The position numbers and the translations under genes are program-made. From Aggregatilinea lenta (lineage in GTDB: Bacteria; Chloroflexota; Anaerolineae; Aggregatilineales; Aggregatilineaceae), in the NCBI RefSeq assembly GCF_003569045.1, contig NZ_BFCB01000003.1, positions 1,054,001 to 1,118,000 on the forward strand: DNA of 64,000 nucleotides, written 5' to 3'. Positions 13,584-27,656 of the stretch are shown piece after piece. Below the pieces are notes generated by a model. That model did no database searches and was not told where the DNA came from. It saw only the letters and a list, made by a program, of their open reading frames with translations. Each line of letters starts with the position of its first letter. Position 1 is the stretch's first letter.

Positions 13584-14489
13584 TTACGCGGTCCCGCCGC
13601 GCAGCGAGGGCGTCCAGAAATCCTGCCCGGCGCGCTGCTTTTCGAGGTCCATCCGGTGCAGCACGCTGAATCCCTTCAACGCGACGCGGATCGCGGTGTC
13701 GTGTCCGGCCCCGGCGGTGAAGGATTCGCCCGTGACGATATTGTCCGCCACGGAGCAGATCGAGCCGCCGCGCTTGCCGAACAGGGTTGCCAGCGTGACC
13801 ACCGCCGCCGATTCGCGGTCGCCGTTGAGTACCCCCGCGCGCCGGTAGTAGTCGATCACTTCGAGGTGGCGCGGCTGCATGTAGCCGCCGACCGAAGGCC
13901 GCCCCACGCCGCAGAAGTCGCTGTCGCTGGAGCGTGTAACGCCCACGTGAAACGATACGCCGAGATCGTATGCAGCCTGCACGAACGCCATCACAACTTC
14001 GTAACTGGCCGCGGCGGGGTAGGACGGCGCGACGTACGCCTGCGTCATGCCCTCGTCGCGCACGACGCCCCGGCTGATCACCACGTCGCCCGGTCGCACC
14101 GACTCGTGCATGCCGCCCGACCCGCCCACACGGACGTAGGTGCTGGCGTCGGTGTTTTCGATGAACTCGTGCAGCACCAATTCGGCTTCTGGGGATCCGC
14201 TGCCGCCGCTCACGATGCTGATCCGCGCGCCTTCGAACGTGCCGGTGTAGGTGGTGAACATGCCCGTACGCGCGATCATCTCCGCGCCTTCGAGGTGCTG
14301 CGCGATCTGCGCGGCGGGGTCGTCCACGTAGTCGCACAGCGGATCGCGCACGGTGAGGATCACGTAATCCCCGATGCGCGCCGGATCGATGCCGGTCAGG
14401 GCGGGCTTGCCGTCGATGAGCAGGCCCTTCAGCGGCACGTTGGGCGCGTAGTCGTAGCGGTCATAGAGCTTCTTGATCGACTCTTGCAT
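13584..14489 (-). CDS. Nucleoside phosphorylase (uridine phosphorylase-like, PNP/UDP family)
   Basis: Expected to cleave a nucleoside with phosphate to a base and ribose 1-phosphate in the cytoplasm. Family features: GDYVILTVRDP near the start, MFTTYTGTFEGARISIVSGGSGSPEAELV (short blocks around residues 75-100), STYVRVGGSGGMHESVRPGDVVIS at about 120-145 (the phosphate/ribose-binding stretch; the run is quoted in shorter pieces TYVRVGGSGG and RPGDVVIS), and the late acidic motif LNGDRESAAVVTLA that contacts the base or ribose. Length 301 aa is slightly longer than bacterial Udp (about 250). It is the last gene of the minus-strand operon with YjbQ, SIS and PfkB proteins, which supports nucleoside catabolism. 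Base specificity cannot be read from the sequence. Confidence 0.85.
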   Translation of the reverse strand: MQESIKKLYDRYDYAPNVPLKGLLIDGKPALTGIDPARIGDYVILTVRDPLCDYVDDPAAQIAQHLEGAEMIARTGMFTTYTGTFEGARISIVSGGSGSPEAELVLHEFIENTDASTYVRVGGSGGMHESVRPGDVVISRGVVRDEGMTQAYVAPSYPAAASYEVVMAFVQAAYDLGVSFHVGVTRSSDSDFCGVGRPSVGGYMQPRHLEVIDYYRRAGVLNGDRESAAVVTLATLFGKRGGSICSVADNIVTGESFTAGAGHDTAIRVALKGFSVLHRMDLEKQRAGQDFWTPSLRGGTA

Positions 14490-14515
14490 GGTGTGGTGGC
14501 CTCGTGTGTACGCGG

Positions 14516-14917
14516 TTATTGGCCGATGACCTGGACGTTATATTGCCGCTGGCGCGGTCCGTCGAACTCGAAGAAATAAATCGCCTGCGAATGGCCCAAT
14601 ACCAGATCCCCGTCCGATACGATCAGCGACAGCGACGCGCCGACCAGCACCGATTTGACGTGTCCGGCGGCGTCCTGGGGCGTGTCGTGCTGGTGCTTGA
14701 AGTCGATGCGCGTCGGGATCAGGCGGCTGATTTCGTCGTTGACGTCTTCCAGCCCCAGCGGATCGGGAAACGAGATGATGGTCAGGGCGGCGGTCGTGTG
14801 CGGGACCATCACCACGGCGATGCCTTCCTGCACCTGCGAGGACGCTACGGCGCGCCGCACCCCCTCGGTGATGTCCACCACGCCGTTACGCTCGGTTTTG
14901 AGCCGTTCCGTGAACAT
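14516..14917 (-). CDS. YjbQ/UPF0047 family protein
   Basis: 133 aa, the normal length of the family. The PHTTAALTI and DVNDEI blocks and the NxxGHxKS-type stretch DAAGHVKSVLVG carry the clustered His/Asp residues typical of the family, followed by the C-terminal EFDGPRQRQ signature. Some members have weak thiamine-phosphate synthase activity, but the physiological role is uncertain. The usual LGTWQ motif is replaced by LGHSQAI. It lies 26 nt upstream of the nucleoside phosphorylase and 49 nt after the SIS gene. Confidence 0.88.
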   Translation of the reverse strand: MFTERLKTERNGVVDITEGVRRAVASSQVQEGIAVVMVPHTTAALTIISFPDPLGLEDVNDEISRLIPTRIDFKHQHDTPQDAAGHVKSVLVGASLSLIVSDGDLVLGHSQAIYFFEFDGPRQRQYNVQVIGQ

Positions 14918-14966
14918 AGAAGCTGTGCCCTTTCGCGTCCGTGCTGCAAAAATCCACTCGTGCGGA

Positions 14967-16097
14967 TCAAAGAATCAGGCTGTTGCGCGTCGTCGCGCCG
15001 TCGTGGCAGTCGGCCCACGGTCCGCTGGCTCCGCGCCCGTACGCCGCGCCGGTTTCGGCGGAGAGATATGCCGCGAAGAGGGCCAGCGGCGCGCTGTAGA
15101 GCAGCGGGGCGAAGACCGGGCGGATCGTCTGTGTGTGGGCCAGGACCTGCCCGAACGCCGCCGCCGCCGGGCCGCCACTGAGGACGAGGTAGGGGCGCTG
15201 GAGCGTGCGCAGGTATCCTTCGACCTCCACCGCGCGGCTGAAGGCGGGTGAATCCACCGGGCAGATCAGGATCGTGCCCGTGCGGGCCGCATCCGCGACG
15301 AAATATTCCTGGTGCACCCACTCCTCGACGTCCTGATGCGCGGCGTGCACGCCGACCGCTTCCAGCAGCTTGGCCGCGCCATAGGCGGCGGTGGCGCGAT
15401 CCGGCCCACTGCCCAACAGCTCGACGGCGGGCAGTGACGCCCACTCCTGCGCGAGGCGTTGAAGCGGCTGATCCATCTGCGCGATCACCGCGTCGACGGC
15501 GTCCGCTGCGGTTTCCAACTCGCGGCGCAGGTCCATCGCTTCGTCAGCGGTGACCTGTCCGCGCACTTCGGCCATGCGGATGGCGAGCAGGTACAGCGTC
15601 AGCAGCGATCCGTAATAGGAGCGGACGCCGGGCGCGGAGGCGAACGGCGGAATCGTGACCTCGACGACGCGGCTGGCGGCGTGTCCGAGGCGGCTGCCGG
15701 GGTTGCCGGTGATCGCCACCGTCAGCGCGCCGCAGTCGTTGTAGTGCTGCACAGCCTCGACGACGCGCGCCACTTCGCCGGAATTGCTTACGGCCAGTAC
15801 CAGGGGATTGGAGGGATATTGCCAGTCGAAGCGGCGGGCGTGGTAGCGCGAGGCCTGCATCGCGCTCAGGGCCTGGGCGCGCACTCCCGCCAGTTCGACG
15901 AACGCCGCTTCCGCCGCCATCGCGCCGATGTACGAATCGCCGCTGCCGGTCAGCACGACGTCTCGCACGGCGAACATCTCCGGCGTGGTGACGATCTTGC
16001 GCGTGCGGCCTTCGAGCGTCCAGATTTGCTCACGAATCAGCGTTGGCAGACTGAATACCTGATCGCGCATGGGGTTGGAAGAGTCGGATGAGGGCAT
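14967..16097 (-). CDS. Double-SIS domain sugar isomerase/deglycase-like protein
   Basis: 376 aa with two SIS (phosphosugar-binding) domains. First domain: VVLTGSGDSYIGAMAAEAA (about residue 48) and LVLAVSNSGEVARVVEAV (about 100). Second domain: VELLGSGPDRATAAYGAAK (about 225), then VEEWVHQEYF. This resembles the isomerase half of GlmS and the FrlB/AgaS relatives; the glutaminase domain is absent. The likely substrate is an aminated or ketose sugar phosphate produced by the PfkB kinase, whose gene lies 42 nt upstream in the same operon. ATG at 16097 is preceded by GCAGGT. The exact reaction cannot be assigned. Confidence 0.85.
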   Translation of the reverse strand: MPSSDSSNPMRDQVFSLPTLIREQIWTLEGRTRKIVTTPEMFAVRDVVLTGSGDSYIGAMAAEAAFVELAGVRAQALSAMQASRYHARRFDWQYPSNPLVLAVSNSGEVARVVEAVQHYNDCGALTVAITGNPGSRLGHAASRVVEVTIPPFASAPGVRSYYGSLLTLYLLAIRMAEVRGQVTADEAMDLRRELETAADAVDAVIAQMDQPLQRLAQEWASLPAVELLGSGPDRATAAYGAAKLLEAVGVHAAHQDVEEWVHQEYFVADAARTGTILICPVDSPAFSRAVEVEGYLRTLQRPYLVLSGGPAAAAFGQVLAHTQTIRPVFAPLLYSAPLALFAAYLSAETGAAYGRGASGPWADCHDGATTRNSLIL

Positions 16098-16139
16098 ACC
16101 TGCTTTGTCCTGTTCGTGAGAGCGTCCGATAAAGAATGG

Positions 16140-17066
16140 TTAGTCGATGCGAGTGGGCGTCAATAGATCGGCGCGCCGCCGGGCTTCGGCTTCGAGCGCG
16201 GCGTCCATGCAGCGCGGCGGTCCGAACTGTTCCAGCATGAACGAGGCGGCGGCGGCTCCACAGCACCCCGCGCGCCGGACGTCTCCGCCGGACATGCAGT
16301 AGCCGACGAGAAAGCCGCCTGTGAAGGCGTTGCCCGCGCCGGTGACGTCCGCGACTTCGACCGGGTAGATCGGGATGTGCCACCTTGCTTCCCGGTCCGC
16401 CGCGATGGTTCCCTCTGCGCCGAGCCTCAGCGCGACCGCACCCACGCCCGCGCCGAGTAATTTTCGCACAATGTCGTGTGGTTCCGCGAGGCGGCACAGC
16501 GCGCGGGCTTCGGCCACGTTCAGCGATACAAGGTCGATGCGCGCCAGGATCGCCGCCGCTGCATCCCACTGGCGCGCCTCCGCCGCGCCTGCGTGCAACT
16601 CCCATACGATGATCGGGCGGCGCGGCGCGATGGCCTGGAAGGCATACACAAGGTCCCAGTACGCGGGATTGGCGTCGCGGAACAGGTACAGCCCGCGCGC
16701 TTTGTGGTATTCGGGCGGCAGATCGGCCAGGGTCGGCTCCATGCGCTTGAAGTGTTCCGGTCCAAACTGCGGATCTTCGACGCGGTCGTCGTCGGAGGCG
16801 TAATTGATGGTGGAGTGGGGCGTTTGGGGCGCGCGCACGTCCAGGCCCCGCGTGTCGATCCCGTTCTGGCGGAACCAGCCGCCCAGCAGTGCGTCGAAGT
16901 CTTCACCTACGCCGGAGACGATGCCCACTGCATTCGACCACAGGCGCATGCCCGCCGCCGCGTAGGTTCCCGCGCCGCCCAGCAGCCCGACCCGCTGCGT
17001 GCCATGCGGCAGGATAAGGTCATCGCTAATGATGTTGGCAACCGACACATACTGAACTGGTTGCAT
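16140..17066 (-). CDS. PfkB-family carbohydrate kinase with GAGN in place of GAGD
   Basis: 308 aa, ribokinase fold, expected to phosphorylate a sugar or nucleoside. Family features are the N-terminal GGAGTYAAAGM sugar-binding motif (residues 30-40), LVSLNVAEARALC (about 180-191) and the ATP/anion-hole motif ADVTGAGNAFTGGFLVGY (239-256). The catalytic base of the family is the Asp of GAGD; here the codon is AAC, giving Asn246. Either the base is supplied otherwise or catalysis is altered; a Mak32-like GAGN subfamily may exist. First gene of the minus-strand operon, divergent from the GntR gene, with the promoter in the shared 144-bp region. Confidence 0.85.
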   Translation of the reverse strand: MQPVQYVSVANIISDDLILPHGTQRVGLLGGAGTYAAAGMRLWSNAVGIVSGVGEDFDALLGGWFRQNGIDTRGLDVRAPQTPHSTINYASDDDRVEDPQFGPEHFKRMEPTLADLPPEYHKARGLYLFRDANPAYWDLVYAFQAIAPRRPIIVWELHAGAAEARQWDAAAAILARIDLVSLNVAEARALCRLAEPHDIVRKLLGAGVGAVALRLGAEGTIAADREARWHIPIYPVEVADVTGAGNAFTGGFLVGYCMSGGDVRRAGCCGAAAASFMLEQFGPPRCMDAALEAEARRRADLLTPTRID

Positions 17067-17092
17067 AACGAAATCCTATGCAGGCTGACCAA

Positions 17093-17145
17093 TTGACATC
17101 TCGAATAGACGTCTATACAATAAAACAAGTTGGCGCAGATGTAAA
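17093..17145. promoter_or_regulatory. Overlapping divergent promoters with a GntR (HutC-type) operator
   Basis: Plus strand: TTGACA at 17093-17098, 17-bp spacer, TACAAT at 17116-17121, a near-consensus sigma-70 promoter for the GntR gene. Minus strand: TTTACA (complement of 17140-17145), 17-bp spacer, TATTGT (complement of 17117-17122) for the PfkB operon, so the two -10 boxes overlap. A perfect 12-bp palindrome ATAGACGTCTAT (17105-17116) and the HutC-subfamily pattern GT-N-TA-N-AC (GTCTATAC, 17111-17118) lie on the -10 boxes. One bound GntR dimer could block both operons. Confidence 0.8.
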
Positions 17146-17210
17146 GATGACCTTTTTTCACTGATTTTCACTGAACTTAAATCTCTTCGTCAAAAACCAG
17201 GGTGAACGAC

Positions 17211-18032
17211 ATGGGAAAAATTGACCGAGAGTCGCCAGTTCCAGCCTACTACCAGATCGCGCTCGATTTGCAGAGCCGCATCGCCAAGCAGGAATGGCGG
17301 GCCGGGGAGAATATCCCATCCGAAACGGCGCTCGCCAAACAGTACGGCGTCAGCCGGGTGACGATGCGCCAGGCGCTCGCGGAACTGGCGAAGGATGGCC
17401 TGCTGGAGCGGCGGCAGGGCAGCGGCACGTTTGTCAGCCAGGAGCCGATCCCGCTGGTGCATGACCAGAGCCTGCCGCATATCATGGCCGGGCGACTGCA
17501 CAGCCGGGGGCTGGTGACCTCGTCGCGCGTGGTGGCGGCGCACACCTTCCCCGATCCGACGCCGCAGGTGCAGGATCACCTACGAATCTCGGCAGAGACA
17601 CCTGTTGCCTATTTAAAACGCATCCTGCTGATCGGCAACCAGCCCGCCGCGCTCAACCGCTCGTGGTTCGACCAGTCGCTGTGTCCCGGTATCACCGAGC
17701 AGGACCTGATCGATGGATCGCTGTCAAGGACGCTGCGCGAGCGGTACGGGCTGGTGCCCGCCTACGCCGACAACTGGCTGGAAGCGGTGCGCGGCACGCG
17801 CGAGACGCTCGATCTGCTGGAGCTGGACGGGGGCCTCGACACCCCCATGATTTTGCTGCAATCCGTGTCATACCTCGCGGATGGGATCCCGCTCGAATAC
17901 TCGATCACCGAGTGGCTGGGCGACCGCATCCGCTTCAACTTCCGCTCGCCCTTCGCGCACGAATCGACCGACCGGCGCTACGGCATGCGGATAGGCTTAA
18001 CCAGCGACTCTGTGCCGATCCCTGAAGATTGA
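17211..18032 (+). CDS. GntR-family regulator (HutC subfamily, UTRA effector domain)
   Basis: 273 aa. The N-terminal winged helix-turn-helix spans residues 5-75 (PAYYQIALDLQSRI, then IPSETALAKQYGVSRVTMRQ, then DGLLERRQGSGTFV). A UTRA effector-binding domain follows (residues 95-255: ETPVAYLKRILLIGNQPAALN, quoted as landmarks ETPVAYLKRIL and PLEYSITEWLGDRIRF). UTRA domains bind small sugar- or nucleoside-like effectors. ATG 17211 is preferred over an in-frame GTG at 17202 because CAGGGTG just upstream of 17205 can serve as the ribosome binding site. It heads the plus operon and is probably autoregulated through the operator at 17105-17118. Confidence 0.92.
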   Translation: MGKIDRESPVPAYYQIALDLQSRIAKQEWRAGENIPSETALAKQYGVSRVTMRQALAELAKDGLLERRQGSGTFVSQEPIPLVHDQSLPHIMAGRLHSRGLVTSSRVVAAHTFPDPTPQVQDHLRISAETPVAYLKRILLIGNQPAALNRSWFDQSLCPGITEQDLIDGSLSRTLRERYGLVPAYADNWLEAVRGTRETLDLLELDGGLDTPMILLQSVSYLADGIPLEYSITEWLGDRIRFNFRSPFAHESTDRRYGMRIGLTSDSVPIPED

Positions 18033-18058
18033 CCGGCGCCCACCCAGGAGGGCTGCTC

Positions 18059-19006
18059 ATGAAGCGAGTGTTGATCGACTGCGATCCCGGAATCGACGAT
18101 GCGTTGGCTCTCATTCTCGCCGTCAAGTCCGGGGGACTGGCGATTGAGGCCATCACCACCGTCACCGGCAACCTGACGGCGGATCGCTGCTACCGCAACG
18201 TGCTGAAGGTGCTGGCGCTGCTGGGCGCGGACCCGCTCCCGATGGGCCAGGGGCCGCTGAAGCCGCTCATTCGCGCGTTCCCGTCCGACCCGTTTTCGCA
18301 CGGCGCGGACGGGCTTGGAAATACCAACCTGCCGGAGCCGGACCTGCCCGCCAGCATCCCCTACGCGCCGAACGTCATCGTAGAAACGGTCAACCGCCAC
18401 GCGGGTGACATCACGCTGATCGCCACCGGGCCGCTGACCAACGTCGCGCTGGCACTGATGCAAGATCCCGATCTGCCCCAAAAAGTGCAGCAGCTGATCA
18501 TCATCGGCGGCGCGTTCGGCTTCGACCGCAGCGCGGCGCTCAACGCCACGGGCGACAACCCGGTGAGCGAGTGGAACATCTACGTCGATCCCGAAGCGGC
18601 CAAGCTCGTCTTTCACGCCGGGTTCAGGCTGGCGGCGCTCGGCCTGGACGTGGCGACACACCACGACATCAACCTGCTGGAACCGGAGATCGAGCGCCTG
18701 AAAGCCGCCACGACGCCGGAAGCGAAATTCGCGCTGGACATCATCGCCTTCACCACGGGGCGCGGCTTTGGAACCTACACCGCGCTGATCGACTCGACCG
18801 CGATCGCGGCGGCGCTGCACCCGGACCTGTTCGAGTTCGTCCCGATCCACGTGGACGTCGAGACGCAGGGTGAGCTGACGCGCGGCGAAACCGTGACCGA
18901 CATCCGCAACAACTTCCGCTGGACTCATCTCCCCGCCATCGACGCGGCGTGCGGGGCCGACTTCGATGCCTTCCGCGACCTCGTCGTGACGACCCTTTGC
19001 CAGTGA
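18059..19006 (+). CDS. Inosine-uridine preferring nucleoside hydrolase
   Basis: Hydrolyses the N-glycosidic bond of ribonucleosides to ribose and a base. 315 aa, normal for the family. The N-terminal Ca2+ site DCDPGIDDALAL is at residues 6-17. TLIATGPLTNVALAL (about 118-132) and the GGAF/NPVSEWNIYVDPEAA ribose-binding block (about 145-178) follow. TALIDSTAIAAAL (about 243) supplies the late conserved Asp. ATG 18059 is chosen because a perfect AGGAGG lies at 18046-18051; a TTG at 18029 would overlap the GntR stop. Second gene of the plus operon, consistent with riboside catabolism. Confidence 0.93.
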   Translation: MKRVLIDCDPGIDDALALILAVKSGGLAIEAITTVTGNLTADRCYRNVLKVLALLGADPLPMGQGPLKPLIRAFPSDPFSHGADGLGNTNLPEPDLPASIPYAPNVIVETVNRHAGDITLIATGPLTNVALALMQDPDLPQKVQQLIIIGGAFGFDRSAALNATGDNPVSEWNIYVDPEAAKLVFHAGFRLAALGLDVATHHDINLLEPEIERLKAATTPEAKFALDIIAFTTGRGFGTYTALIDSTAIAAALHPDLFEFVPIHVDVETQGELTRGETVTDIRNNFRWTHLPAIDAACGADFDAFRDLVVTTLCQ

Positions 19007-19136
19007 AGCCGGAGCAGGCAAGAAAACAGGCGGTGAACCGGATGACGCCACCAGAAAGGAGAGGCTCTCGCAGGACGATCGTGCGTGCTTGTGTCCCGTT
19101 TTCCCCTCGACAGCCCGCCATAAGGAGATATGCTCG

Positions 19137-20480
19137 ATGAAGACGAAAAAGATAACATTGGTGCTGGTCGCTGTGCTGTTGCTGGGCACGCTGGCCAGCG
19201 GTGCCACCGCCCAGGCGCGTCAGCGCGAGACGATCTCGATGTGGTTCTGGGGCGCTCCCCCAGAGCATCAGGTGACCATGAACGAAGTGCTCGTCGAGCC
19301 GTACAACGCCTCGCAGGACGAGTACGAGCTGGTGATCGAGTTCCGCAACACCGTAGACAACGACATCGCCGTGGCGCTGGCCGCCGGTGAAGGCCCGGAC
19401 ATCGTGTACGGGTCCGGCCCGTCGTTCGTAGCCCCCTACGCCGCTGCTGGCAAGCTGGCATCGATGGATCCGTATTCCGAGCAGTACGGCTGGCAGGATC
19501 GCATCCTGGCCCCGATTTACGAATCGGGCACGGTTAACGGCGAGCTGTACGCACTGCCCAACTCGCTGAACACGCTCGGCATCTTCTATAACAAGGCCGT
19601 GCTCGAAGAATACGGCTGGGAGCCGCCAACCACGATCGAGGACCTGGAAGCGATCATGGATGCCGCGATGGAAGAGGGTCTCTACGCTTCCGTCACCGGC
19701 AACAAGGGCTGGCGGCCCGTTAACGAAAACTACACCTCGCTGTTCCTGACGCATATGGCCGGGCCGGAAGCCGTGTACGAAGCGCTGACCGGCGCGCGCC
19801 CGTGGAACTCGCCCGAAATCGCCGCTGCCGTCGAGAAGTCGGCGGAGTGGTACCAGAAGGGCTATCTGGCCGGGGAAGATTACATCAACCTCAACTTTAA
19901 CGATGCGGTGCAGCTTCTGGCCGCGCACGAATCGCCGTTCTTCATCGGCCCGACGCTGGTCTTCCAGTTTGCGACGCAGTTTTTCAACGAGGAAAGCGGC
20001 AACGTGGACGAACTGGGCTTCATCCCGTTCCCGTCCATCGGCGACCTGCCGTACCCGCTGTATACGCTGGGGACCACCGCTTCGCTGTCGATCAACGGCA
20101 GCTCCGAGCATAAGGACGCCGCCGCGGCCATCATCGACCGTATGATGACGCAGGACTTCCTGGTCCAGATGACCGAGCGTTGGCCCGGTTACTGGGGTGT
20201 GCCGGTGAAGGAACTGGACGTGAACCCCGACGACTTCCAGGGCTTGTCGCGCGAGTATCTCATCGCGATCCAGGACATGATCACCGCCGTCAACGAGGGC
20301 CACTTCGGTTACTTCTCCGCGACCTTCTTCCCGCCCGCGACGCAGCAGGAGTTCATTAACGTCGATACGGTCTGGCTCGACACGGCCTCGGTCGACGAGT
20401 TCCTGACGCGCGTCGACGAGGTCTTCGCCGAGGAGCTTGAGAAACAAATGGTGCCGCCGATCCCCGTGCCGGGTGAATAG
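19137..20480 (+). CDS. Sugar ABC transporter substrate-binding protein (family 1)
   Basis: 447 aa. The signal peptide MKTKKITLVLVAVLLLG is followed by an Ala-rich cleavage region near residue 27 (ATAQARQ) without a lipobox Cys. The mature protein has the family 1 binding-protein layout: ISMWFWGAPPEHQ, AAGEGPDIVYGSGPSFVAPY, NGELYALPNSLNTLGIFYNK and the C-terminal WPGYWGVPVKEL. It captures solute outside the membrane for the two permeases encoded downstream. ATG 19137 follows AAGGAG at 19122-19127; an upstream in-frame start would place 16 residues before the signal peptide. No ATPase gene is in the operon, so a shared MsmX/UgpC-type ATPase must be supplied from elsewhere. Confidence 0.93.
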   Translation: MKTKKITLVLVAVLLLGTLASGATAQARQRETISMWFWGAPPEHQVTMNEVLVEPYNASQDEYELVIEFRNTVDNDIAVALAAGEGPDIVYGSGPSFVAPYAAAGKLASMDPYSEQYGWQDRILAPIYESGTVNGELYALPNSLNTLGIFYNKAVLEEYGWEPPTTIEDLEAIMDAAMEEGLYASVTGNKGWRPVNENYTSLFLTHMAGPEAVYEALTGARPWNSPEIAAAVEKSAEWYQKGYLAGEDYINLNFNDAVQLLAAHESPFFIGPTLVFQFATQFFNEESGNVDELGFIPFPSIGDLPYPLYTLGTTASLSINGSSEHKDAAAAIIDRMMTQDFLVQMTERWPGYWGVPVKELDVNPDDFQGLSREYLIAIQDMITAVNEGHFGYFSATFFPPATQQEFINVDTVWLDTASVDEFLTRVDEVFAEELEKQMVPPIPVPGE

Positions 20481-20512
20481 GGCGGTCGGGCGCTGCACGG
20501 CGCCCGGAACGT

Positions 20513-20568
20513 AACGAACGGAGAGCGCTGTGTGCCGGGTCGTGTGGTCCGGTACACAGCCGTTCGTT
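20513..20568 (+). promoter_or_regulatory. Long two-part hairpin between binding-protein and permease genes
   Basis: The outer stem AACGAACGG (20513-20521) pairs with CCGTTCGTT (20560-20568). The inner stem GCTGTGTGCCGG (20527-20538) pairs with CCGGTACACAGC (20549-20560) with one G-T pair. No T tract follows. Position suggests mRNA 3'-end protection or partial termination raising binding-protein levels. Confidence 0.65.
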
Positions 20569-20602
20569 CAGGCATCCTGGTCGTGTACAAAGGATCTCGT
20601 GT

Positions 20603-21463
20603 ATGAAGTCGCTGCGTTATTACCTGCTGGTGATGCCTGCGCTGCTCTTGAGCCTGTCGATTATCGCCGTTCCCGGCCTGCTGACCGTCTACGTGTCGTT
20701 TACCGACTGGAACGGCGTCTCGCCGCACATGAACTGGATCGGGCTGGGGAACTACCGGAGCATCGTCGACGACAAGGTGTTCTGGCAGGCGCTGACGAAT
20801 AACTTTCGTTGGACGCTGCTGTTCCTGACCATCCCGGTGTTCATCGGCCTGCTGACGGCAATGCTGCTGCTGCGCCGCAAACATGGCCGCACCGCGTACC
20901 AGATTATCTTTCTGTTCCCCTACGTGCTGGCCCCCGTCACCAACGCGATCCTGTGGCTGAATATCATGTTGAATCCGCTGACGGGTGTGGTGGGCTATTT
21001 GCGTGATTACGGCTTCCCGCTGCGCTCGCCGCTGGGTAACCTCGACACCGCGCTGTACACCGTCGCTACGGTGGATATCTGGCACTACTGGGGCTTTCTG
21101 ACGATTGTGTACCTCGCCGCGCTGCGCCAGACGCCGCAGGAACTGGTCGAAGCGGCGCGGGTGGAGGGCGCGAACGGCTGGCAGTTGTTCCGGCATATTT
21201 ATCTGCCTTCGATCCGGCCCACCGTGCAGTTGATGTTCGTCATGATCATCATCTTCTCGTTCCTGACGTTCGACTATATTTACCTGCTGACGGGCGGCGG
21301 CCCCGCCCACGCGACGGAAATGTTGAGTACCTACGCCTACACCTTCGCCTTCCTGACGTTCCAGTTCGGCAAAGCGTCGGCGGTGGGGCTGGTGATGAGC
21401 CTGTTCGGGCTGTCGGCTTCCTTCCTGTACGTCTGGCTCAGTCGAAAGGACATTGGCGCATGA
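20603..21463 (+). CDS. Sugar ABC transporter permease (MalF/UgpA type)
   Basis: 286 aa, six predicted membrane helices beginning with YYLLVMPALLLSLSIIAVPG. The inner-membrane EAA loop is visible as LVEAARVEGANGWQLFRHIYLP (about residue 175; E-A-A-x-x-x-G), which docks to the ATPase. It forms the membrane channel with the following gene, whose start overlaps its stop by 4 nt (ATGA), indicating translational coupling. It lies downstream of the family 1 binding protein and belongs to the GntR-controlled operon. Confidence 0.93.
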   Translation: MKSLRYYLLVMPALLLSLSIIAVPGLLTVYVSFTDWNGVSPHMNWIGLGNYRSIVDDKVFWQALTNNFRWTLLFLTIPVFIGLLTAMLLLRRKHGRTAYQIIFLFPYVLAPVTNAILWLNIMLNPLTGVVGYLRDYGFPLRSPLGNLDTALYTVATVDIWHYWGFLTIVYLAALRQTPQELVEAARVEGANGWQLFRHIYLPSIRPTVQLMFVMIIIFSFLTFDYIYLLTGGGPAHATEMLSTYAYTFAFLTFQFGKASAVGLVMSLFGLSASFLYVWLSRKDIGA

Positions 21464-22296
21464 GAGTCCGCCTGTCACAAGGGATCGGAGGCACGGCGGC
21501 GCACCTGATCCTGATCCTGTTCGCGATCACGGCGCTGTTCCCGCTGTCGCTGGTGGCGGTCAACAGCGTCAAGACGCACCGCGAAATCGTCAAGAATCCG
21601 CTGGCGCTGCCGCAGACGCTCGACTGGGAGAACTATTCTGAAGCGTGGGAGTTCGGACATTTCCAGCAGGGTTTCGTCAACAGTATCAAGCTGTCGGGCA
21701 CGGCGATCCTGACGGTGCTGGTGTGTTCGTCGCTGGCCGGATACGTGCTAGCGGGCAAGAAGATCAGGACGTGGCCGCTGATCATGATTTATTTCATGGT
21801 CGCCATGACCGTGCCGATCCAGTTATTCATGTTCCCGCTGTACTACGTCTTCGCCCGGCTGCATTTGCTCGGCAACGTGTACGCGGTCGGGGTGGTGCTG
21901 GCCGCGCTGAACCTGCCGCTGGCGGTGTTTCTGATGCGGTCGTTTTTCCTGAACGTGCCGGTCGAATTGGAAGAAGCCGCCATGATCGACGGGGCCGGGA
22001 CGCTGCAACTGCTGCTGCGTGTCATGCTGCCGCTGGTGTCGCCGGGCATGATCACCGTCGCGGTGATCGTGGGCTTGCAGTCGTGGAACGAGTACCTGAT
22101 CACCTCGACGTTTTTGCAGGGGCAGTCGAACTTCACCGCGACATTGGGCTTCCTGTCGATGAACGGCACGTATACCGTCGATCAGGGGCTGATGATGGCC
22201 GCCGCCGTGATCATGATCGGCCCGGTGATCGTGTTTTTCGTCGCGGTGCAGCGCTATTTCATCGATGGCCTGGTCAGCGGTGCGTTGAAGGGGTAG
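21460..22296 (+). CDS. Sugar ABC transporter permease (MalG/UgpE type)
   Basis: 278 aa, six predicted membrane helices. The second-permease pattern is clear: an N-terminal periplasmic segment with VNSVKTHREIVKNP, the EAA loop LEEAAMIDGAGTLQLLLRV (about residue 170), and the C-terminal ending QRYFIDGLVSGALKG typical of MalG-like proteins. It pairs with the preceding permease. The next gene, an ADP-ribosylglycohydrolase homologue, starts 7 nt after its stop. Confidence 0.93.
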   Translation: MRVRLSQGIGGTAAHLILILFAITALFPLSLVAVNSVKTHREIVKNPLALPQTLDWENYSEAWEFGHFQQGFVNSIKLSGTAILTVLVCSSLAGYVLAGKKIRTWPLIMIYFMVAMTVPIQLFMFPLYYVFARLHLLGNVYAVGVVLAALNLPLAVFLMRSFFLNVPVELEEAAMIDGAGTLQLLLRVMLPLVSPGMITVAVIVGLQSWNEYLITSTFLQGQSNFTATLGFLSMNGTYTVDQGLMMAAAVIMIGPVIVFFVAVQRYFIDGLVSGALKG

Positions 22297-22303
22297 AGAA
22301 GCG

Positions 22304-24421
22304 ATGCCGGTTGCGCAGTATCAAGAGCGGATTTATGCGGGCGTGTTGGGCAAGATCATCGGCGTATACCTGGGGCGCGCCGTCGAGGGCTGGAGCTACG
22401 AGGCGATCCGGTCGCGCTTCGGCACGGTGGATTTTTACGTCAACGAGCATATCGGCATGCCGCTGATCGTGCCCGACGATGACATCTCCGGCACGTTCGT
22501 GTTTTATCGCGCCCTGGCCGATAACGCCTATCCCGCCGCCATCACCGCGCGGCAGGTGGGCGAAACGTGGCTGAACTACGTCATCGAGGACAAGACGATC
22601 CTGTGGTGGGGCGGTCTGAGCCGTTCCACCGAGCACACCGCGTTTTTGCGCCTGAAGGCGGGCATTCCCGCGCCGCAGAGCGGATCGATCGCGCTCAACG
22701 GGCAGTCGATGGCGGAGCAGATCGGCGCAGAGATCTTCGTCGATACGTGGGCAATGGTCAACCCCGGCGACCCGGAACGCGCCGTTGCGATGGCGCGCGA
22801 GGCCGCGTCGGTCAGCCACGACGGGTTGGCAGTCGAGGCGGCGTGCGTGCTGGCGGCGATGGAAGCGCTGGCCTTTGACGAGCCGCGTCTGGACGTGCTG
22901 ATCGAGCAGGGACTCAGCATGACGTCCGATGCGCGTCTGCTGCGCATGGCGGGCGACGTGATCGACGTCTGCGCCAAAACGGACGACTGGCGCGCCGCGC
23001 GCGACTGGATCGCGCAGCACCACGGCTACGAACGCTATCCCGGCAACTGCCCGATGGCGACCAATCACCTCGCGGTGTTGATGGCGCTGATGATGGGCGG
23101 CGACGACTTCCAGCACAGCATCATGATCGCGGCGTCGGCGGGCTGGGATACGGACTGCAACGCGGGCAACGTCGGCTGCCTGAACGCGATCCGGCTGGGC
23201 CTGCCCGCGCTGGACGCCGGGGCGGATCTGCGCAAGCCCGTGGGGGACCGGATGCTGGTGGTCAGTGCCGATGGTGGCGAGTGTTTCACGGACGCCGTGA
23301 TCGAGGCGCGCAAGATCGTGCACGCGGCGGCAGCGCTGCGCGGGGAGACGGTCGAGCTGCCTTCTGCGCGCTACGCCTTCGAGTATGCGGGATCGATGCA
23401 GGGCTTCGCCATTCATCCGACGCCCGTACTGGGGCAGGCGGTGACGCGCGTCGAAAACGCGCTTGGGCCGACAGGCGAAGCCGGGCTGTTGATCCTCTAC
23501 GAAGGGCTTGCGCCGGGCGCGCGCGGGACCGTCTCGGCGCAGACGTTTGTGGATCCGGAGCCGAAGGGCGTCAAGGGCACCAGCTACTTCGAGGTGATCG
23601 CCAGCCCGACGCTCTACCCAACGCAGACCGTGCGCGCCACGATCAAGACCTTCGATGAGGTGAATCCGGCGCTGGCGTTCTTCGTCGATTATTACGACGA
23701 AAACGACGAGATCGCCACGCTGACCGGCGAAGCGTTTGCGCTGGCGAACGGGATCAATGACCTGGAATGGACCGTACCCGACACGGGCGGCCACCCGATC
23801 TATCGCCTGGGCCTCATGCTGAGCGCCGCGCGCAGGCTCGACGGGGCAGTTGCGCTGTTGAGCCTGGATTGGTCCGGCGCGCCGGAACGCTTCGTCATGG
23901 GGCGCTCGATGGAGCTGTCACCGTCGCTGACGCCGTGGACGACCGTGACGACCTGGATGAACGGCTTCGTCAGCTCGGCGCGCAACCTCGCGCCGGACTA
24001 CACCACGACGCTCTCACTCTCGCATCCGACCGAAAACGGCGTGATCACGACCGGCACGCGCGACTGGGCGGACTACGAGGTCGCCTCGACGATCACGTTT
24101 TTGCAGCAGCGTGCGGCGGGACTCGTGGCGCGCGCCAGGGGACACCGGCGCTACTACGCGGCGGCGATTCGCGACGGGCAGGCCGTGATCCTCAAGCGCC
24201 GGGACGGCGAGGTGAGCACGCTGGCCGCCGGGCCGCAGGGCTACGCCGTGGACGAGACGCACGCGCTGGCGCTGCGCGTTCAGGGGGACCGGCTGGTGAT
24301 GCTCGTGGACGGGCAGCAGGTCGCGGAAGCGGTGGACGGCGAGTACCCGTTTGGCGGGGCGGGTTTCGTGGTGGACGAGGGTGGCATCCTGTGCGACGGC
24401 TTCAGTGTCGCGCGGATCTGA
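22304..24421 (+). CDS. ADP-ribosylglycohydrolase-family protein with added C-terminal beta domain (copy 1)
   Basis: 705 aa. Residues 1-370 match the ARH fold: AGVLGKIIGVYLGRAVEGW (12-30), the first acidic metal cluster PDDDISGT (57-64), VSHDGLAVEAACVLAAMEAL (about 168-187), and the second metal motif WDTDCNAGNVGCLN (about 281-294), corresponding to the D-x-D-T region of ARH enzymes. Residues 400-705 form an extra domain (TVRATIKTFDEVNP, DLEWTVPDTGGHPI, a C-terminal LamG-like stretch GHRRYYAAAIRDGQ), probably carbohydrate or ligand binding. ARH enzymes hydrolyse N- or O-glycosidic bonds to ADP-ribose; the operon suggests an imported glycoside instead. No signal peptide, so cytoplasmic. Confidence 0.85.
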   Translation: MPVAQYQERIYAGVLGKIIGVYLGRAVEGWSYEAIRSRFGTVDFYVNEHIGMPLIVPDDDISGTFVFYRALADNAYPAAITARQVGETWLNYVIEDKTILWWGGLSRSTEHTAFLRLKAGIPAPQSGSIALNGQSMAEQIGAEIFVDTWAMVNPGDPERAVAMAREAASVSHDGLAVEAACVLAAMEALAFDEPRLDVLIEQGLSMTSDARLLRMAGDVIDVCAKTDDWRAARDWIAQHHGYERYPGNCPMATNHLAVLMALMMGGDDFQHSIMIAASAGWDTDCNAGNVGCLNAIRLGLPALDAGADLRKPVGDRMLVVSADGGECFTDAVIEARKIVHAAAALRGETVELPSARYAFEYAGSMQGFAIHPTPVLGQAVTRVENALGPTGEAGLLILYEGLAPGARGTVSAQTFVDPEPKGVKGTSYFEVIASPTLYPTQTVRATIKTFDEVNPALAFFVDYYDENDEIATLTGEAFALANGINDLEWTVPDTGGHPIYRLGLMLSAARRLDGAVALLSLDWSGAPERFVMGRSMELSPSLTPWTTVTTWMNGFVSSARNLAPDYTTTLSLSHPTENGVITTGTRDWADYEVASTITFLQQRAAGLVARARGHRRYYAAAIRDGQAVILKRRDGEVSTLAAGPQGYAVDETHALALRVQGDRLVMLVDGQQVAEAVDGEYPFGGAGFVVDEGGILCDGFSVARI

Positions 24422-24444
24422 CGGAATCGATGGAGACGGGATAC

Positions 24445-26547
24445 ATGGGTATCGAACGTTACGCCGCGCAGATGTACGCGGGCGTGCTGGGCAAGATGAT
24501 CGGGGTCTACCTGGGCCGTCCGGTCGAGGGCTGGTCCTACGAAAAGATTCAGGAAGTCTTCGGTGAAGTCGATTATTACGTGCACGACCGCATCGGCGCG
24601 CCGCTGGTGGTGGCCGACGACGATCTCTCCGGCACGTTCGGGTTTTTCCGCGCGCTGGAAGACAACGGCTATCCGGCGGATCTGACCCCGCAGCAGGTTG
24701 GGCAGACGTGGCTGAACTACATCATCGAGGACAAGACGATCCTGTGGTGGGGCGGGCTGGGGCGCTCGACCGAGCACACCGCCTATTTGCGGCTGAAGGA
24801 CGGCGTCCCCGCGCCGCGCAGCGGCTCGATTGAACTGAACGGCCCGACCATCGCGCAGCAGATCGGCGCACAGATCTTCATGGACGCGTTTGCGATGACC
24901 TCGCCCGGCGACCCCGACCGCGCGGTGGCGCTGGTGCGCGCGGCGGCGTCGGTCAGCCACGACGGGATCGCGGTCGAGGCGGCGTGTTTCCTGGCGGCCA
25001 TGGAAGCGCTGGCATTCGACGTGCGCCCGCTGGACGATCTGATAGAGGGCGCGCTGCCCTACGTAACCTCGGCCACGCTGAAGAAATTGATCGATGACGT
25101 GCGCATGATCTGCGCGCAGGAATCCGACTGGCGCGCCGTGCGCGCGTGGCTCGATCCGCGTTACGGTTACGGCGTATGTCCCGGTCCATGCCACATCATC
25201 CCCAATCACGCAATGGTGCTCAGCGCGCTGCTGCTGGGCGGCGACGACTTCCAGTGCAGCGTCACGATCGGGGCATCGGCGGCATGGGATACCGACTGCA
25301 ACGCGGGCAACGTCGGCTGCCTGAACGGCATCCGGCTGGGGCTGGAGGGGCTGCGCGGCGGGGCGGATTTTCGCGCGCCGGTCGCGGATCTGCTCTACGT
25401 GGTGACGGCGGACGGCGGCTCGTGCGTGACGGACGCCGTGCAGCAGACCAACGGCATCGCGCGCGCGGCGGCAGCGCTGAACGGCGAGCCGGTTCCCGAA
25501 CGCGGGCCGCGCTACAGCTTCGACTACCCCGGCTCCACGCAGGGTTTCGTGCCGTGCCCGTACGGCAGCGCGCCCTATCCTGTGGCGCGTGTCGGCAACC
25601 TGAACGAGACTTCGGACGAGAACGGGCTGGTGGTGGCGTACCATGCGCTGGCGCAGGGCGTGACGTGCCAGGTGTCCACGCCTACATTCCTTGATTTCAG
25701 CGTGCTGGCGAACAACTTCGCCACGATCGCCAGTCCGACGCTGTACGCGACGCAAACCGTGCGGGCGCACGTCAAGGCGTTCGCGGATGTGAACCCGCGC
25801 CTGCGGTTTTACGTGCTGTACTACGACTCCGATAACGAAGTCGGCCGTATGGCGGGCGATCTGTTCGATCTGGCGCGCGGTGTGAACGCGCTCGAATGGA
25901 CCGTGCCCGATACGGGCGGCATGCCGATCTTCCGGCTGGGGATCGAGCTGGTCGCCGACCGGCGGCTGGACGGGCGGATCGGCCTGCTCGACCTGGACTG
26001 GGACGGCGCGCCCGCTGCGTTTGCGCAGCAGGGCATGCTGATGACGTCGATCTGGAACCTCGCGCCCTACTGGTTGCAGGCGTGGGTGAGTTCGGCGCGG
26101 CAGTTCGCACCCGACTTCACCTATACCTACTGCATCTCGCACACGGTAGACAACGGCGTGGTCACGCTGGGCACGCAGGACTGGGCCGATTACAGCGTGG
26201 AGAGTGGTATTGCGTTCAGCCTGCACGAAGCAGGCGGTCTGGTCCTGCGCAGCAAGGGCCACCGGCGCTACTACGCCGCGCTGCTGTCCGGCGGCACGAC
26301 CGCGTCGATCATCGCCCGGCGCGATGATGTGGTCGAAACGCTGGCGTCGGTGCCGTTTCCGTACGAGATGGATCGCGTCTATGCCCTGCGATTTGACGCG
26401 CAGGGCGACGCGCTGGCGCTGTCGATTGACGGCGCACGCGTGCTGGAAACGCGCGATCCTGAGGGGCGGCACGCGCACGGCGGAGCCGGGTTCGTCGTCG
26501 AGCGCGGCACGATCCTCGCGGACGGCTTCCGGGTCGCCGCGCTCTGA
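24445..26547 (+). CDS. ADP-ribosylglycohydrolase-family protein, tandem paralogue (copy 2)
   Basis: 700 aa, a paralogue of the preceding gene along its whole length: same N-terminal AGVLGKMIGVYLGRPVEGW, VADDDLSGT metal cluster, VSHDGIAVEAACFLAAMEAL and AWDTDCNAGNVGCLNGIRLG. The same C-terminal beta region is present (NALEWTVPDTGGMPIFRLG, GHRRYYAALLSGGT). ATG 24445 is chosen because it gives exactly the same 11-residue lead to AGVLGK as copy 1; GGAG lies about 9 nt upstream, and an in-frame ATG at 24430 is the alternative. Last gene of the plus operon; the gap to copy 1 is 23 nt. The two copies may act on different anomers or glycosides, or form a heteromer; this is inference. Confidence 0.85.
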   Translation: MGIERYAAQMYAGVLGKMIGVYLGRPVEGWSYEKIQEVFGEVDYYVHDRIGAPLVVADDDLSGTFGFFRALEDNGYPADLTPQQVGQTWLNYIIEDKTILWWGGLGRSTEHTAYLRLKDGVPAPRSGSIELNGPTIAQQIGAQIFMDAFAMTSPGDPDRAVALVRAAASVSHDGIAVEAACFLAAMEALAFDVRPLDDLIEGALPYVTSATLKKLIDDVRMICAQESDWRAVRAWLDPRYGYGVCPGPCHIIPNHAMVLSALLLGGDDFQCSVTIGASAAWDTDCNAGNVGCLNGIRLGLEGLRGGADFRAPVADLLYVVTADGGSCVTDAVQQTNGIARAAAALNGEPVPERGPRYSFDYPGSTQGFVPCPYGSAPYPVARVGNLNETSDENGLVVAYHALAQGVTCQVSTPTFLDFSVLANNFATIASPTLYATQTVRAHVKAFADVNPRLRFYVLYYDSDNEVGRMAGDLFDLARGVNALEWTVPDTGGMPIFRLGIELVADRRLDGRIGLLDLDWDGAPAAFAQQGMLMTSIWNLAPYWLQAWVSSARQFAPDFTYTYCISHTVDNGVVTLGTQDWADYSVESGIAFSLHEAGGLVLRSKGHRRYYAALLSGGTTASIIARRDDVVETLASVPFPYEMDRVYALRFDAQGDALALSIDGARVLETRDPEGRHAHGGAGFVVERGTILADGFRVAAL

Positions 26548-26738: not shown

Positions 26739-27656
26739 CTAACCTTTCGTAAACTCTGCGACATCGGCCTTGCTGACCGAGGCCAGCGACATCGCTTCGC
26801 CTTTGGTGATCGCCGCCACGGCCATCACGTGATCGCCGCCGCCGTAGTAGATCAAATACTTATCGTCCGTCTCGACGCCGCCACAGGTGAACACCACGTT
26901 CGGCACGTCGCCGTGCACTTCCCAGGGCGCGCGCGGCACGAGGATCGGCTCGTCCTGGCGCTTGAGCACCTTTGACGGATCGTTCAGGTCCAGCAGGGCG
27001 AGTCCCAGGCAGTACACGCGCTCCTCCGCGAAGCCGTGATAGAAGCACAGCCAGCCGTCATCGGTGCGGAAGGGCGGCCCGCCCGCGCCGATGCGCACGC
27101 CGTCCCACAGGCCGGGGCGCGGATTCATGATGATCTGGTGATCGGTCCAGTGCAGCAGGTCGTCGGAGAACGCCAGCCAGATGTCGGGAATGCGCCGGTG
27201 GAACATCGCGTAGCGCCCGTCGATTTTCTCAGGGAACAGCACCGCGTCTTTGTTGTCTTCGTCGGGCAGGATGATACCCATCCGCTCCCATGCGATCAGG
27301 TTGCGGCTGCGCGCCATCGAGACGCGCGTGCCCAGCGAGGAATAGGCGGTGTAGATCATGTAGAACCAGCCGTCCAGCCTGGTAACGCGCGGATCTTCGA
27401 CGCCAAACGCCTCGTAATCTTCTTCCGGCACGAAGACCGGCTCCTGCAAGCGGTTGAAGTGGTAACCGTCGCCGCTGACCGCGCAGCCAATGCGCGAGAC
27501 GCGGTCCAGACCTTGCGCCCGGTACAACATGTAGATTAGCCCTTCGTGCTCGACCACCGCCGCATTGAAGACGTTGTCGGTTTCCCACTCGTTCACCAGG
27601 GAGGGCACCAGGATCGGATTGCCGGGATAGCGCGTCAAAGTGAGTGGTTTGCTCAT
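26739..27656 (-). CDS. GH130-family glycoside phosphorylase
   Basis: 305 aa five-bladed beta-propeller. Features: RYPGNPILVPS at the N terminus, NVFNAAVVEHEGLIYMLYRA (about residues 28-47), YEAFGVEDPRVTRLDGWFYM (about 80-99, containing the catalytic Asp region EDPRV), WDGVRIGAGGPPFRTDDGWL (about 183-202) and YYGGGDHVMAVA at the end. Family members phosphorolyse beta-mannosides such as mannosyl-glucose, giving mannose 1-phosphate. Its start overlaps the... upstream DUF624 stop by 4 nt (27653-27656). It is the distal gene of the LacI-controlled oligosaccharide operon and so acts in the cytoplasm on the imported sugar. Confidence 0.88.
   Translation of the reverse strand: MSKPLTLTRYPGNPILVPSLVNEWETDNVFNAAVVEHEGLIYMLYRAQGLDRVSRIGCAVSGDGYHFNRLQEPVFVPEEDYEAFGVEDPRVTRLDGWFYMIYTAYSSLGTRVSMARSRNLIAWERMGIILPDEDNKDAVLFPEKIDGRYAMFHRRIPDIWLAFSDDLLHWTDHQIIMNPRPGLWDGVRIGAGGPPFRTDDGWLCFYHGFAEERVYCLGLALLDLNDPSKVLKRQDEPILVPRAPWEVHGDVPNVVFTCGGVETDDKYLIYYGGGDHVMAVAAITKGEAMSLASVSKADVAEFTKG

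What the first reader, a model, noticed from the sequence alone, without database searches (positions are those of the whole stretch)
17093..17145. Overlapping back-to-back promoters under one GntR site
TTGACA-17-TACAAT (plus) and TTTACA-17-TATTGT (minus) share their -10 boxes, and a perfect 12-bp palindrome plus a GTCTATAC (GT-N-TA-N-AC) element covers them. Polymerases cannot occupy both at once, giving either/or control of transport genes and kinase/phosphorylase genes unless the regulator is released.
Basis: seen in the sequence. Interest (0 to 1): 0.6.

Follow-up and report, generated by a model that had tools for sequence, protein, structure and literature searches.

The report
Repressor-covered two-way promoter, riboside genes
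One short stretch of DNA appears to start transcription in both directions of a sugar/nucleoside-breakdown gene cluster, and a repressor made from that same cluster probably sits on it and switches both halves on and off together; this is a well-formed example of a known arrangement, with an unusual-looking repressor site.

Summary
In detail: TTGACA-17-TACAAT (+) and TTTACA-17-TATTGT (-) share five -10 bases under a perfect 12-bp palindrome (17105-17116) and GTCTATAC (17111-17118). None of 20,000 shuffles put GTNTANAC on a shared -10 pair. Predicted starts lie 18 bp apart, the commonest spacing of E. coli bidirectional promoters (PMC12825309). The neighbouring GntR is a HutC/UTRA protein. Its relatives at the same catabolic island in one Caldilineaceae and two Lachnospiraceae-family genomes have TTGT-N12-ACAA in the intergenic region (0 of 5000 shuffles match), overlapping the -10 of a predicted promoter. 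A matrix from those sites alone ranks the window's site first in 64 kb, though moderately against shuffles as a 20-mer. A shared regulatory site is supported; 'either/or' control is not: relatives keep transport and kinase genes in one direction, so co-induction is likelier, competition setting the ratio. Known kind (compare PacrA/acrR). Unusual: GT-N12-AC spacing, 8 bp wider than ordinary HutC sites. No transcript or binding data.

The parts
17093..17121 (+). predicted sigma-70-type promoter toward GntR, nucleoside hydrolase, ABC transporter and ADP-ribosylglycohydrolase-family genes: TTGACA-17-TACAAT; start near 17128 if 7 bp from the -10
   Evidence: 11 of 12; not mapped
17117..17145 (-). 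predicted promoter toward pfkB, SIS, yjbQ and phosphorylase genes: TTTACA-17-TATTGT; start near 17110 if 7 bp from the -10
   Evidence: 9 of 12; TTKACA-17-TATTGTATA is shared with the divergent promoter of L029
17105..17116 (.). perfect 12-bp palindrome ATAGACGTCTAT; central N12 of the predicted 20-bp operator
17111..17118 (+). GTCTATAC, matches the HutC consensus core GTMTAKAC
   Evidence: consensus in PMC4494728 (passages)
17101..17128 (.). predicted operator: overlapping 20-bp sites 17101-17120 (TCGA-N12-ACAA) and 17109-17128 (ACGT-N12-ACAA); AC half-sites at 17109, 17117, 17125 in 8-bp steps
17211..18032 (+). GntR/HutC (UTRA) regulator, 273 aa, ATG start assumed; AGGG ends 8 bases upstream of it
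   Evidence: PF07702 98.7 bits, PF00392 73.2 bits
18029..19006 (+). inosine/uridine-preferring nucleoside hydrolase family protein
19089..20480 (+). ABC solute-binding protein
20603..22296 (+). two ABC permeases (20603-21463, 21460-22296)
22304..26547 (+). two tandem ADP-ribosylglycohydrolase-family proteins (22304-24421, 24433-26547)
   Evidence: 159.8 and 164.9 bits
16140..17066 (-). PfkB-family kinase
14967..16097 (-). SIS-domain protein, nearest to the isomerase part of GlmS
14516..14917 (-). YjbQ/UPF0047
13584..14489 (-). nucleoside phosphorylase family protein, nearest to uridine phosphorylases

Best explanation
The stretch 17093-17145 is a bidirectional promoter: one pseudo-symmetric -10 (TATACAATA) read in both directions, each direction with its own -35 17 bp away. 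The HutC/UTRA protein encoded at 17211 binds an operator at about 17101-17128. This covers the + spacer and -10 and the - strand -10 and start site, so both directions, including its own gene, are shut together. An effector, probably a metabolite of the pathway, releases it and both operons are induced together. While the site is free, polymerase binds in one orientation at a time. Because the + promoter is nearer consensus, competition should bias output toward transport and hydrolases over kinase and phosphorylase. Shown here: the sequence elements, their excess over chance, recurrence of a related operator in orthologous loci, and a clade of regulators. Inferred: binding, repression, effector, start sites, competition.
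For: Elements and chance. HutC assignment. Same island with a related GntR: L029/L042 (53% identity; synteny), L030 (about 36%; pfkB divergent from GntR), L060 (44%). Regulators of window, L029, L030, L060 plus L043 form a clade at 100/99; the four alone 86/77, an unstarred branch. TTGT-N12-ACAA: one in L029, one in L030, two in L060, none in window or L044; 0 of 5000 shuffles had it in three or more of the five regions. These sites overlap the -10 of a predicted promoter at L029 (TTGACA-17-TATTGT), L030 (TTGAAA-17-TAACAT) and, for one of its two sites, L060 (TTGACA-17-TAAAGT). A matrix from the four sites, without the window, puts the window's site first on both strands of 64 kb; shuffles of the intergenic region at least as good: 146 of 5000 (20-mer), 100 of 5000 (symmetrised), 1 of 5000 (28-mer). 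HutC operators are detectable near such genes: GTMTAKAC within 250 bp upstream of 6 of 27 HutC-like genes, mean 0.2 and maximum 3 in 300 shuffles. Predicted starts 18 bp apart (coordinates), the commonest distance in PMC12825309.
Against: No transcript or binding data. The left arm of the window's 20-mer is TCGA, not TTGT, and arms alone are not significant (147 places with up to two arm mismatches in the window). GTMTAKAC itself is absent upstream of the nearest relatives L029, L030, L043 and L060. Half-site definition, 8-bp step and N12 were noticed by eye before testing, so the counts are optimistic. L043, inside the 100/99 clade, has none of these elements upstream. The window 28-mer matches L060 (95 of 3000 shuffles as good) and L044 (706 of 3000) only weakly, against L029 (11) and L030 (1). 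In L030 three minus-strand candidates reach 9/12, so the overlapping one is not unique. The - promoter is weak, and another candidate (TTGACG-18-GAAAAT, 17193-17164) lies upstream of it.
Confidence: 0.68

Rival explanations
1. Only the + promoter is real. The - hexamers are a by-product of the symmetric AT-rich operator, and pfkB is transcribed from elsewhere, for instance TTGACG-18-GAAAAT at 17193-17164.
For: - promoter only 9 of 12; alternative 9-of-12 promoter upstream; -10 boxes are inherently symmetric (PMC12825309).
Against: TTKACA-17-TATTGTATA is also found toward the divergent operon in L029; 0 of 30,000 shuffles of the L029 region gave a 9-of-12 minus promoter with that -10 plus 3 bases, though the pattern was picked after seeing both.
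Confidence: 0.2
2. True either/or switch: with the regulator released, one operon is transcribed at the expense of the other, in a physiologically meaningful way.
For: Overlapping -10 boxes exclude simultaneous polymerases; a near-consensus + promoter makes interference plausible (PMC12825309 saw interference once a -35 was improved).
Against: In L029/L042 and L058-L063 transport and kinase genes run in one direction, so the pathway seems to want both; a common operator favours co-induction.
Confidence: 0.12
3. The 12-bp palindrome is the site of another regulator or a chance palindrome; the GntR protein binds elsewhere.
For: A 12-bp palindrome arises in 654 of 20,000 shuffles; the island in L092 has divergent operons with no GntR hit in the 19.5 kb fetched.
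Against: The palindrome is exactly centred in a 20-bp site found by a matrix made without the window; GTCTATAC fits the HutC core.
Confidence: 0.1

Closest known systems
Bidirectional promoters of E. coli, especially PacrA/acrR (PMC12825309; first two of six parts and searched passages seen)
   Same: shared pseudo-symmetric -10, divergent mRNAs, one of them the gene of a repressor that represses both directions
   Different: TetR-type AcrR there, HutC/UTRA here; start sites mapped there, predicted here; activators known there, none known here
HutC-subfamily divergons with a single central site (PMC4494728; searched passages seen)
   Same: regulator gene in one arm, operator between the two operons, GT/AC half-sites, additional half-sites 7-12 nt away described
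   Different: that paper gives 4 nt between GT and AC for most HutC sites; in the relatives here the arms are GT-N12-AC, and half-sites recur in 8-bp steps
GgaR (YegW)/yegTUV of E. coli (PMC10819704; abstract and passages seen)
   Same: GntR-family single-target repressor of a small operon; that yegU is ADP-ribosylglycohydrolase-type, yegV PfkB-type and YegW UTRA-type is recalled
   Different: divergent fbaB was not affected by the regulator there; ABC transporter, SIS and YjbQ genes are not part of that operon
NagR/YvoA of B. subtilis (PMC4333415; passages seen)
   Same: closest solved relative by sequence; native sites are imperfect palindromes
   Different: NagR reads G-5 with Arg38; the window protein has PSETA where relatives with GG/CC-flanked sites have PSERE (equating that Arg with Arg38 is from recall), and its site lacks the flanking GG/CC
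NupR of B. thuringiensis (PMC9430930; passages and the section on sites seen)
   Same: HutC regulator of nucleoside uptake; several of its 13 listed sites contain GACGT
   Different: different genes, 20-bp consensus not a perfect palindrome, several targets

Membership tests
Bidirectional promoter | shared or overlapping -10 boxes on opposite strands, start sites commonly 10, 18 or 23 bp apart | tested here: met
   five shared bases, predicted starts 18 bp apart; definition
Bidirectional promoter | divergent RNAs actually made from it | not testable with these tools
   no transcript data
HutC subfamily of GntR | GntR wHTH plus UTRA domain | tested here: met
HutC subfamily of GntR | operator NyGTMTAKACNy (GT-N4-AC) | tested here: inconclusive
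   GTCTATAC present in the window, but GTNTANAC absent from the intergenic regions of L029, L030 and L060, which have TTGT-N12-ACAA
Autoregulated divergon | regulator gene in one arm, site between the arms, on promoter elements of both | tested here: met
Autoregulated divergon | regulator binds the site and represses both arms | not testable with these tools
   needs gel shift and expression data
yegTUV/GgaR system | transporter, ADP-ribosylglycohydrolase and PfkB kinase genes under a GntR repressor sensing ADP-glucose | tested here: inconclusive
   PfkB, ADP-ribosylglycohydrolase and GntR families present; transporter is of ABC type; effector untested; gene families of yegTUV recalled

The most novel reading that the evidence does not exclude
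A clade of HutC/UTRA repressors that travels with a cross-phylum ribosyl-compound catabolic island reads operators of a new geometry: GT and AC arms separated by 12 bp (8 more than ordinary HutC sites), with further half-sites repeated every 8 bp so that several protomers could load side by side across a bidirectional promoter. In the window and in L029 the better -35 lies on the side of the transport genes, as if promoter strength had switched strand when the operon was rearranged.
Probability: 0.3. Interest if true: 0.55.

Novelty: new member of a known kind. Interest (0 to 1): 0.4.

Why it matters
The bidirectional promoters in the papers seen here are from E. coli and Salmonella. This is a sequence-level example from a distant group (the same class as a Caldilineaceae genome), with a recurring operator on top. 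It predicts the operator of an otherwise uncharacterised regulator and ties it to an eleven-gene island found in two phyla, on which two literature searches returned nothing relevant. If the 8-bp lattice and N12 spacing hold, they extend the operator geometries known for the HutC subfamily.

Tried and rejected
Genome-wide search for further copies: the palindrome is unique without mismatch. CGTCTATACAATA with up to two mismatches gives 18 places, its own included, against 24 for the reversed control, so no evidence for a larger regulon from that pattern. I looked at six of the 17 other places and three of the five: L102, L108 and L114 overlap no ORF of 100 aa, and only L102 has both arms of a HutC-type site. 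A 14-mer core shared with L029 (11 of 14) arises in 32 of 5000 shuffles, and a shared 9-mer in 625 of 5000, so I do not rest on these alone.

Spread of the regulator. Own family: 11 of 18 genomes, own included, match at 1e-30, none outside the own genome better than 39% identity. Phylum sample of 400 genomes: only the own genome at 1e-40. Order, 154 genomes at 1e-60: own plus one, L034/L044. Class sample of 396: own plus two. Order of G759, 46 genomes at 1e-55: only itself. One scan of genome contigs: four relatives. Plasmids: none at 1e-35. Several of these are samples with a capped first look, so absence is not shown; the regulator looks rare and patchy.

An AraR-like reading of the ACGT-centred palindrome was dropped by inspection: the GT/AC positions do not fit. 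A fructosamine-type pathway (SIS plus PfkB) was considered: both proteins match NCBIfam models only below the curated cut-offs, so the substrate is left open.

Rows dropped before counts: one search used 27 HutC-like loci and left out L008 (DNA-binding domain only), three weaker own-genome hits without a locus, L031, L032, duplicates of loci (L034-L036) and the window itself; L013/L014 and L027/L028 are near-copies, so 6 of 27 holds about five independent sites. The tree used 26 rows and also left out L024 and L028, judged near-copies from their recognition helices and scores. In one search the registers of the five sites were set by eye; L030's best leave-one-out hit was the reverse strand of the same site, and L044 failed (284 of 3000 shuffles as good).

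Full report
What is there. The intergenic region 17067-17210 (144 bp, 39% GC) separates a minus-strand set pfkB, SIS, yjbQ, phosphorylase from a plus-strand set gntR, nucleoside hydrolase, ABC binding protein, two permeases and two ADP-ribosylglycohydrolase-family genes. Against 20,000 dinucleotide shuffles the shared -10 pair is rare (92, or 3 at a summed score of 20 or more), and no shuffle had GTNTANAC on such a pair. The palindrome by itself (654 of 20,000) or GTNTANAC by itself (412) would not be remarkable.

The regulator. The 273-aa protein has a GntR wHTH and a UTRA domain well above Pfam cut-offs; its best solved relatives by sequence are YvoA/NagR, then YydK and DasR. Within 250 bp upstream of 27 HutC-like genes examined, 6 have GTMTAKAC against a mean of 0.2 and a maximum of 3 in 300 shuffles. 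Five of these six regulators read PSERE before the recognition helix and have GGT...ACC sites. The sixth, L044, reads PPETE and has TTGTCTAGACAT. The window reads PSETA and its core lacks GG/CC. This agrees with the NagR structure paper, where Arg38 reads G-5 and Arg48 reads G-4 (PMC4333415, passages); equating the PSERE arginine with Arg38 is my recall. Against an ordinary HutC site: L029, L030, L043 and L060, the window's nearest relatives, have no GTNTANAC upstream.

Orthologous loci. One genome-contig scan gave four relatives, the best L029, a Caldilineaceae MAG, 53% identical. There gntR and the nucleoside hydrolase gene face away from binding protein, permeases, two ADP-ribosylglycohydrolases, then pfkB, SIS, yjbQ and phosphorylase, all in one direction. 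L030, a Lachnospiraceae MAG, has pfkB divergent from gntR, with yjbQ and part of SIS nearby. A search of 299 genomes of that family with the PfkB alignment found 7 with a match at 1e-45, its own included. Of nine stretches then fetched (L058-L066), six hold the island with one to three of its genes missing from the hits (L058-L063; L058-L060 lie in one genome) and three do not (L064-L066). L060 has a gntR (44%) divergent from its island. L061, L062 and L063, and less clearly L058, have a LacI-like ORF upstream instead, judged by eye. L092, from the window's order, has the window's divergent layout with no gntR hit in the 19.5 kb fetched. L094 also holds the island, with only a weak partial GntR hit 7 kb or more away; L093 and L095-L099 hold parts of it. 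So gene set and regulator are separable, and the layout varies.

The shared operator. L029 has, on the strand facing away from gntR, TTGACA-17-TATTGTATA, against TTTACA-17-TATTGTATA in the window; none of 5000 shuffles held TTKACA-17-TATTGTATA and none of 30,000 a 9-of-12 promoter with that -10 plus three bases. The pattern was chosen after seeing both. HutC half-sites (ACAA or TA[GT]AC) recur in 8-bp direct steps: 7 pairs in 4 of 6 regions against a mean of 0.16, and in none of 2000 shuffles did any spacing from 4 to 20 reach four regions. L030 and L043 had no such pair. TTGT-N12-ACAA occurs in the intergenic regions of L029 (7774), L030 (7801) and L060 (1613 and 1753), not in those of the window or L044; among spacers of 2 to 18 only 12 (four sites) and 16 (one site) occur, and 0 of 5000 shuffles had N12 in three regions. 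In 26 sources scanned whole the pattern turned up at six other places, in L059 (2), L060, L061, L063 and L092. A matrix made from the four sites alone scores 17101-17120 and 17109-17128 highest of all positions on both strands of the window. Shuffle counts are moderate for 20-mers (146 and, symmetrised, 100 of 5000) and strong for 28-mers (1 of 5000). Leave-one-out gave 0 of 3000 for the window, but registers were set by eye; L044 failed it (284 of 3000).

Tree. Of 26 HutC-like proteins, window, L029, L030, L060 and L043 form a clade at 100/99, the four island regulators alone at 86/77, which is below the mark for a firm branch.

Mechanism. The operator 17101-17128 covers the + spacer and -10 and the - strand -10 and start, so a bound repressor should block both directions. 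In L029, L030 and, for one of its two sites, L060 the site likewise overlaps the -10 of a predicted promoter toward enzyme or transport genes (L030 is less clear since it has three candidates). In L060 the second site lies about 17 bp before the gntR start. With the repressor off, polymerases exclude each other, as described for bidirectional promoters (PMC12825309). That paper reports too little basal activity for competition at five promoters, competition once a -35 is improved, and repression of both directions by AcrR at PacrA/acrR. Here the + promoter is 11 of 12, so competition at the expense of the - side is plausible but unmeasured. Because relatives keep transport and kinase genes in one direction, I read the design as joint induction with a set ratio, not a choice.

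Known or new. This is a bidirectional promoter in a predicted autoregulated HutC divergon, both described kinds. PMC4494728 (passages) reports that single sites in FadR/HutC divergons usually sit mid-region and may serve both operons, and that extra half-sites 7-12 nt away are common. What I did not see described is GT-N12-AC as a HutC arm spacing: that paper gives 4 nt for most HutC groups, with exceptions of other form. None of my searches was aimed at the spacing itself, and I saw only listings and passages.

Limits. No transcripts, binding data or effector. Patterns were found and tested partly on the same few sequences. Only three orthologous loci define the operator.

Noticed in passing
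window 13584-26547; L029, L042, L030, L058-L063, L092, L094: The set ABC binding protein, two permeases, ADP-ribosylglycohydrolase-family proteins, PfkB, SIS, YjbQ, phosphorylase and nucleoside hydrolase recurs, rearranged and with some genes missing, in a Caldilineaceae MAG, other genomes of the window's class and Lachnospiraceae, three times in one genome; two searches returned no paper on it.
   Followed up: partly
window 22304-26547: Two tandem ADP-ribosylglycohydrolase-family proteins of about 705 aa; only about 290 aa match Pfam in each, the remaining roughly 400 aa match nothing at 0.001, and the first has no solved relative by phmmer at 0.001.
   Followed up: no
L102 around 1501-1513 (own genome C3:535541-535553): Intergenic TTGTATAGACAA, a symmetric HutC-type site with another TAGAC nearby, beside a gene whose N-terminus looks like a glycoside hydrolase family 38 protein (by eye, not searched).
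   Followed up: partly
window 17164-17193: A second minus-strand promoter-like site, TTGACG-18-GAAAAT, upstream of the shared one.
   Followed up: no
L030 4137-5107: In the Lachnospiraceae MAG the start of a nucleoside hydrolase seems to run into the later part of the SIS gene; a deletion or misassembly.
   Followed up: no
L060 1613-1632 and 1753-1772: Two TTGT-N12-ACAA sites in one divergent intergenic region, with ACAAGCAGACAAGAT repeated at or just after both.
   Followed up: partly
window 26739-27656: Minus-strand protein similar to beta-1,2-mannobiose phosphorylase (369.6 bits, below the 450 cut-off) directly after the island.
   Followed up: no
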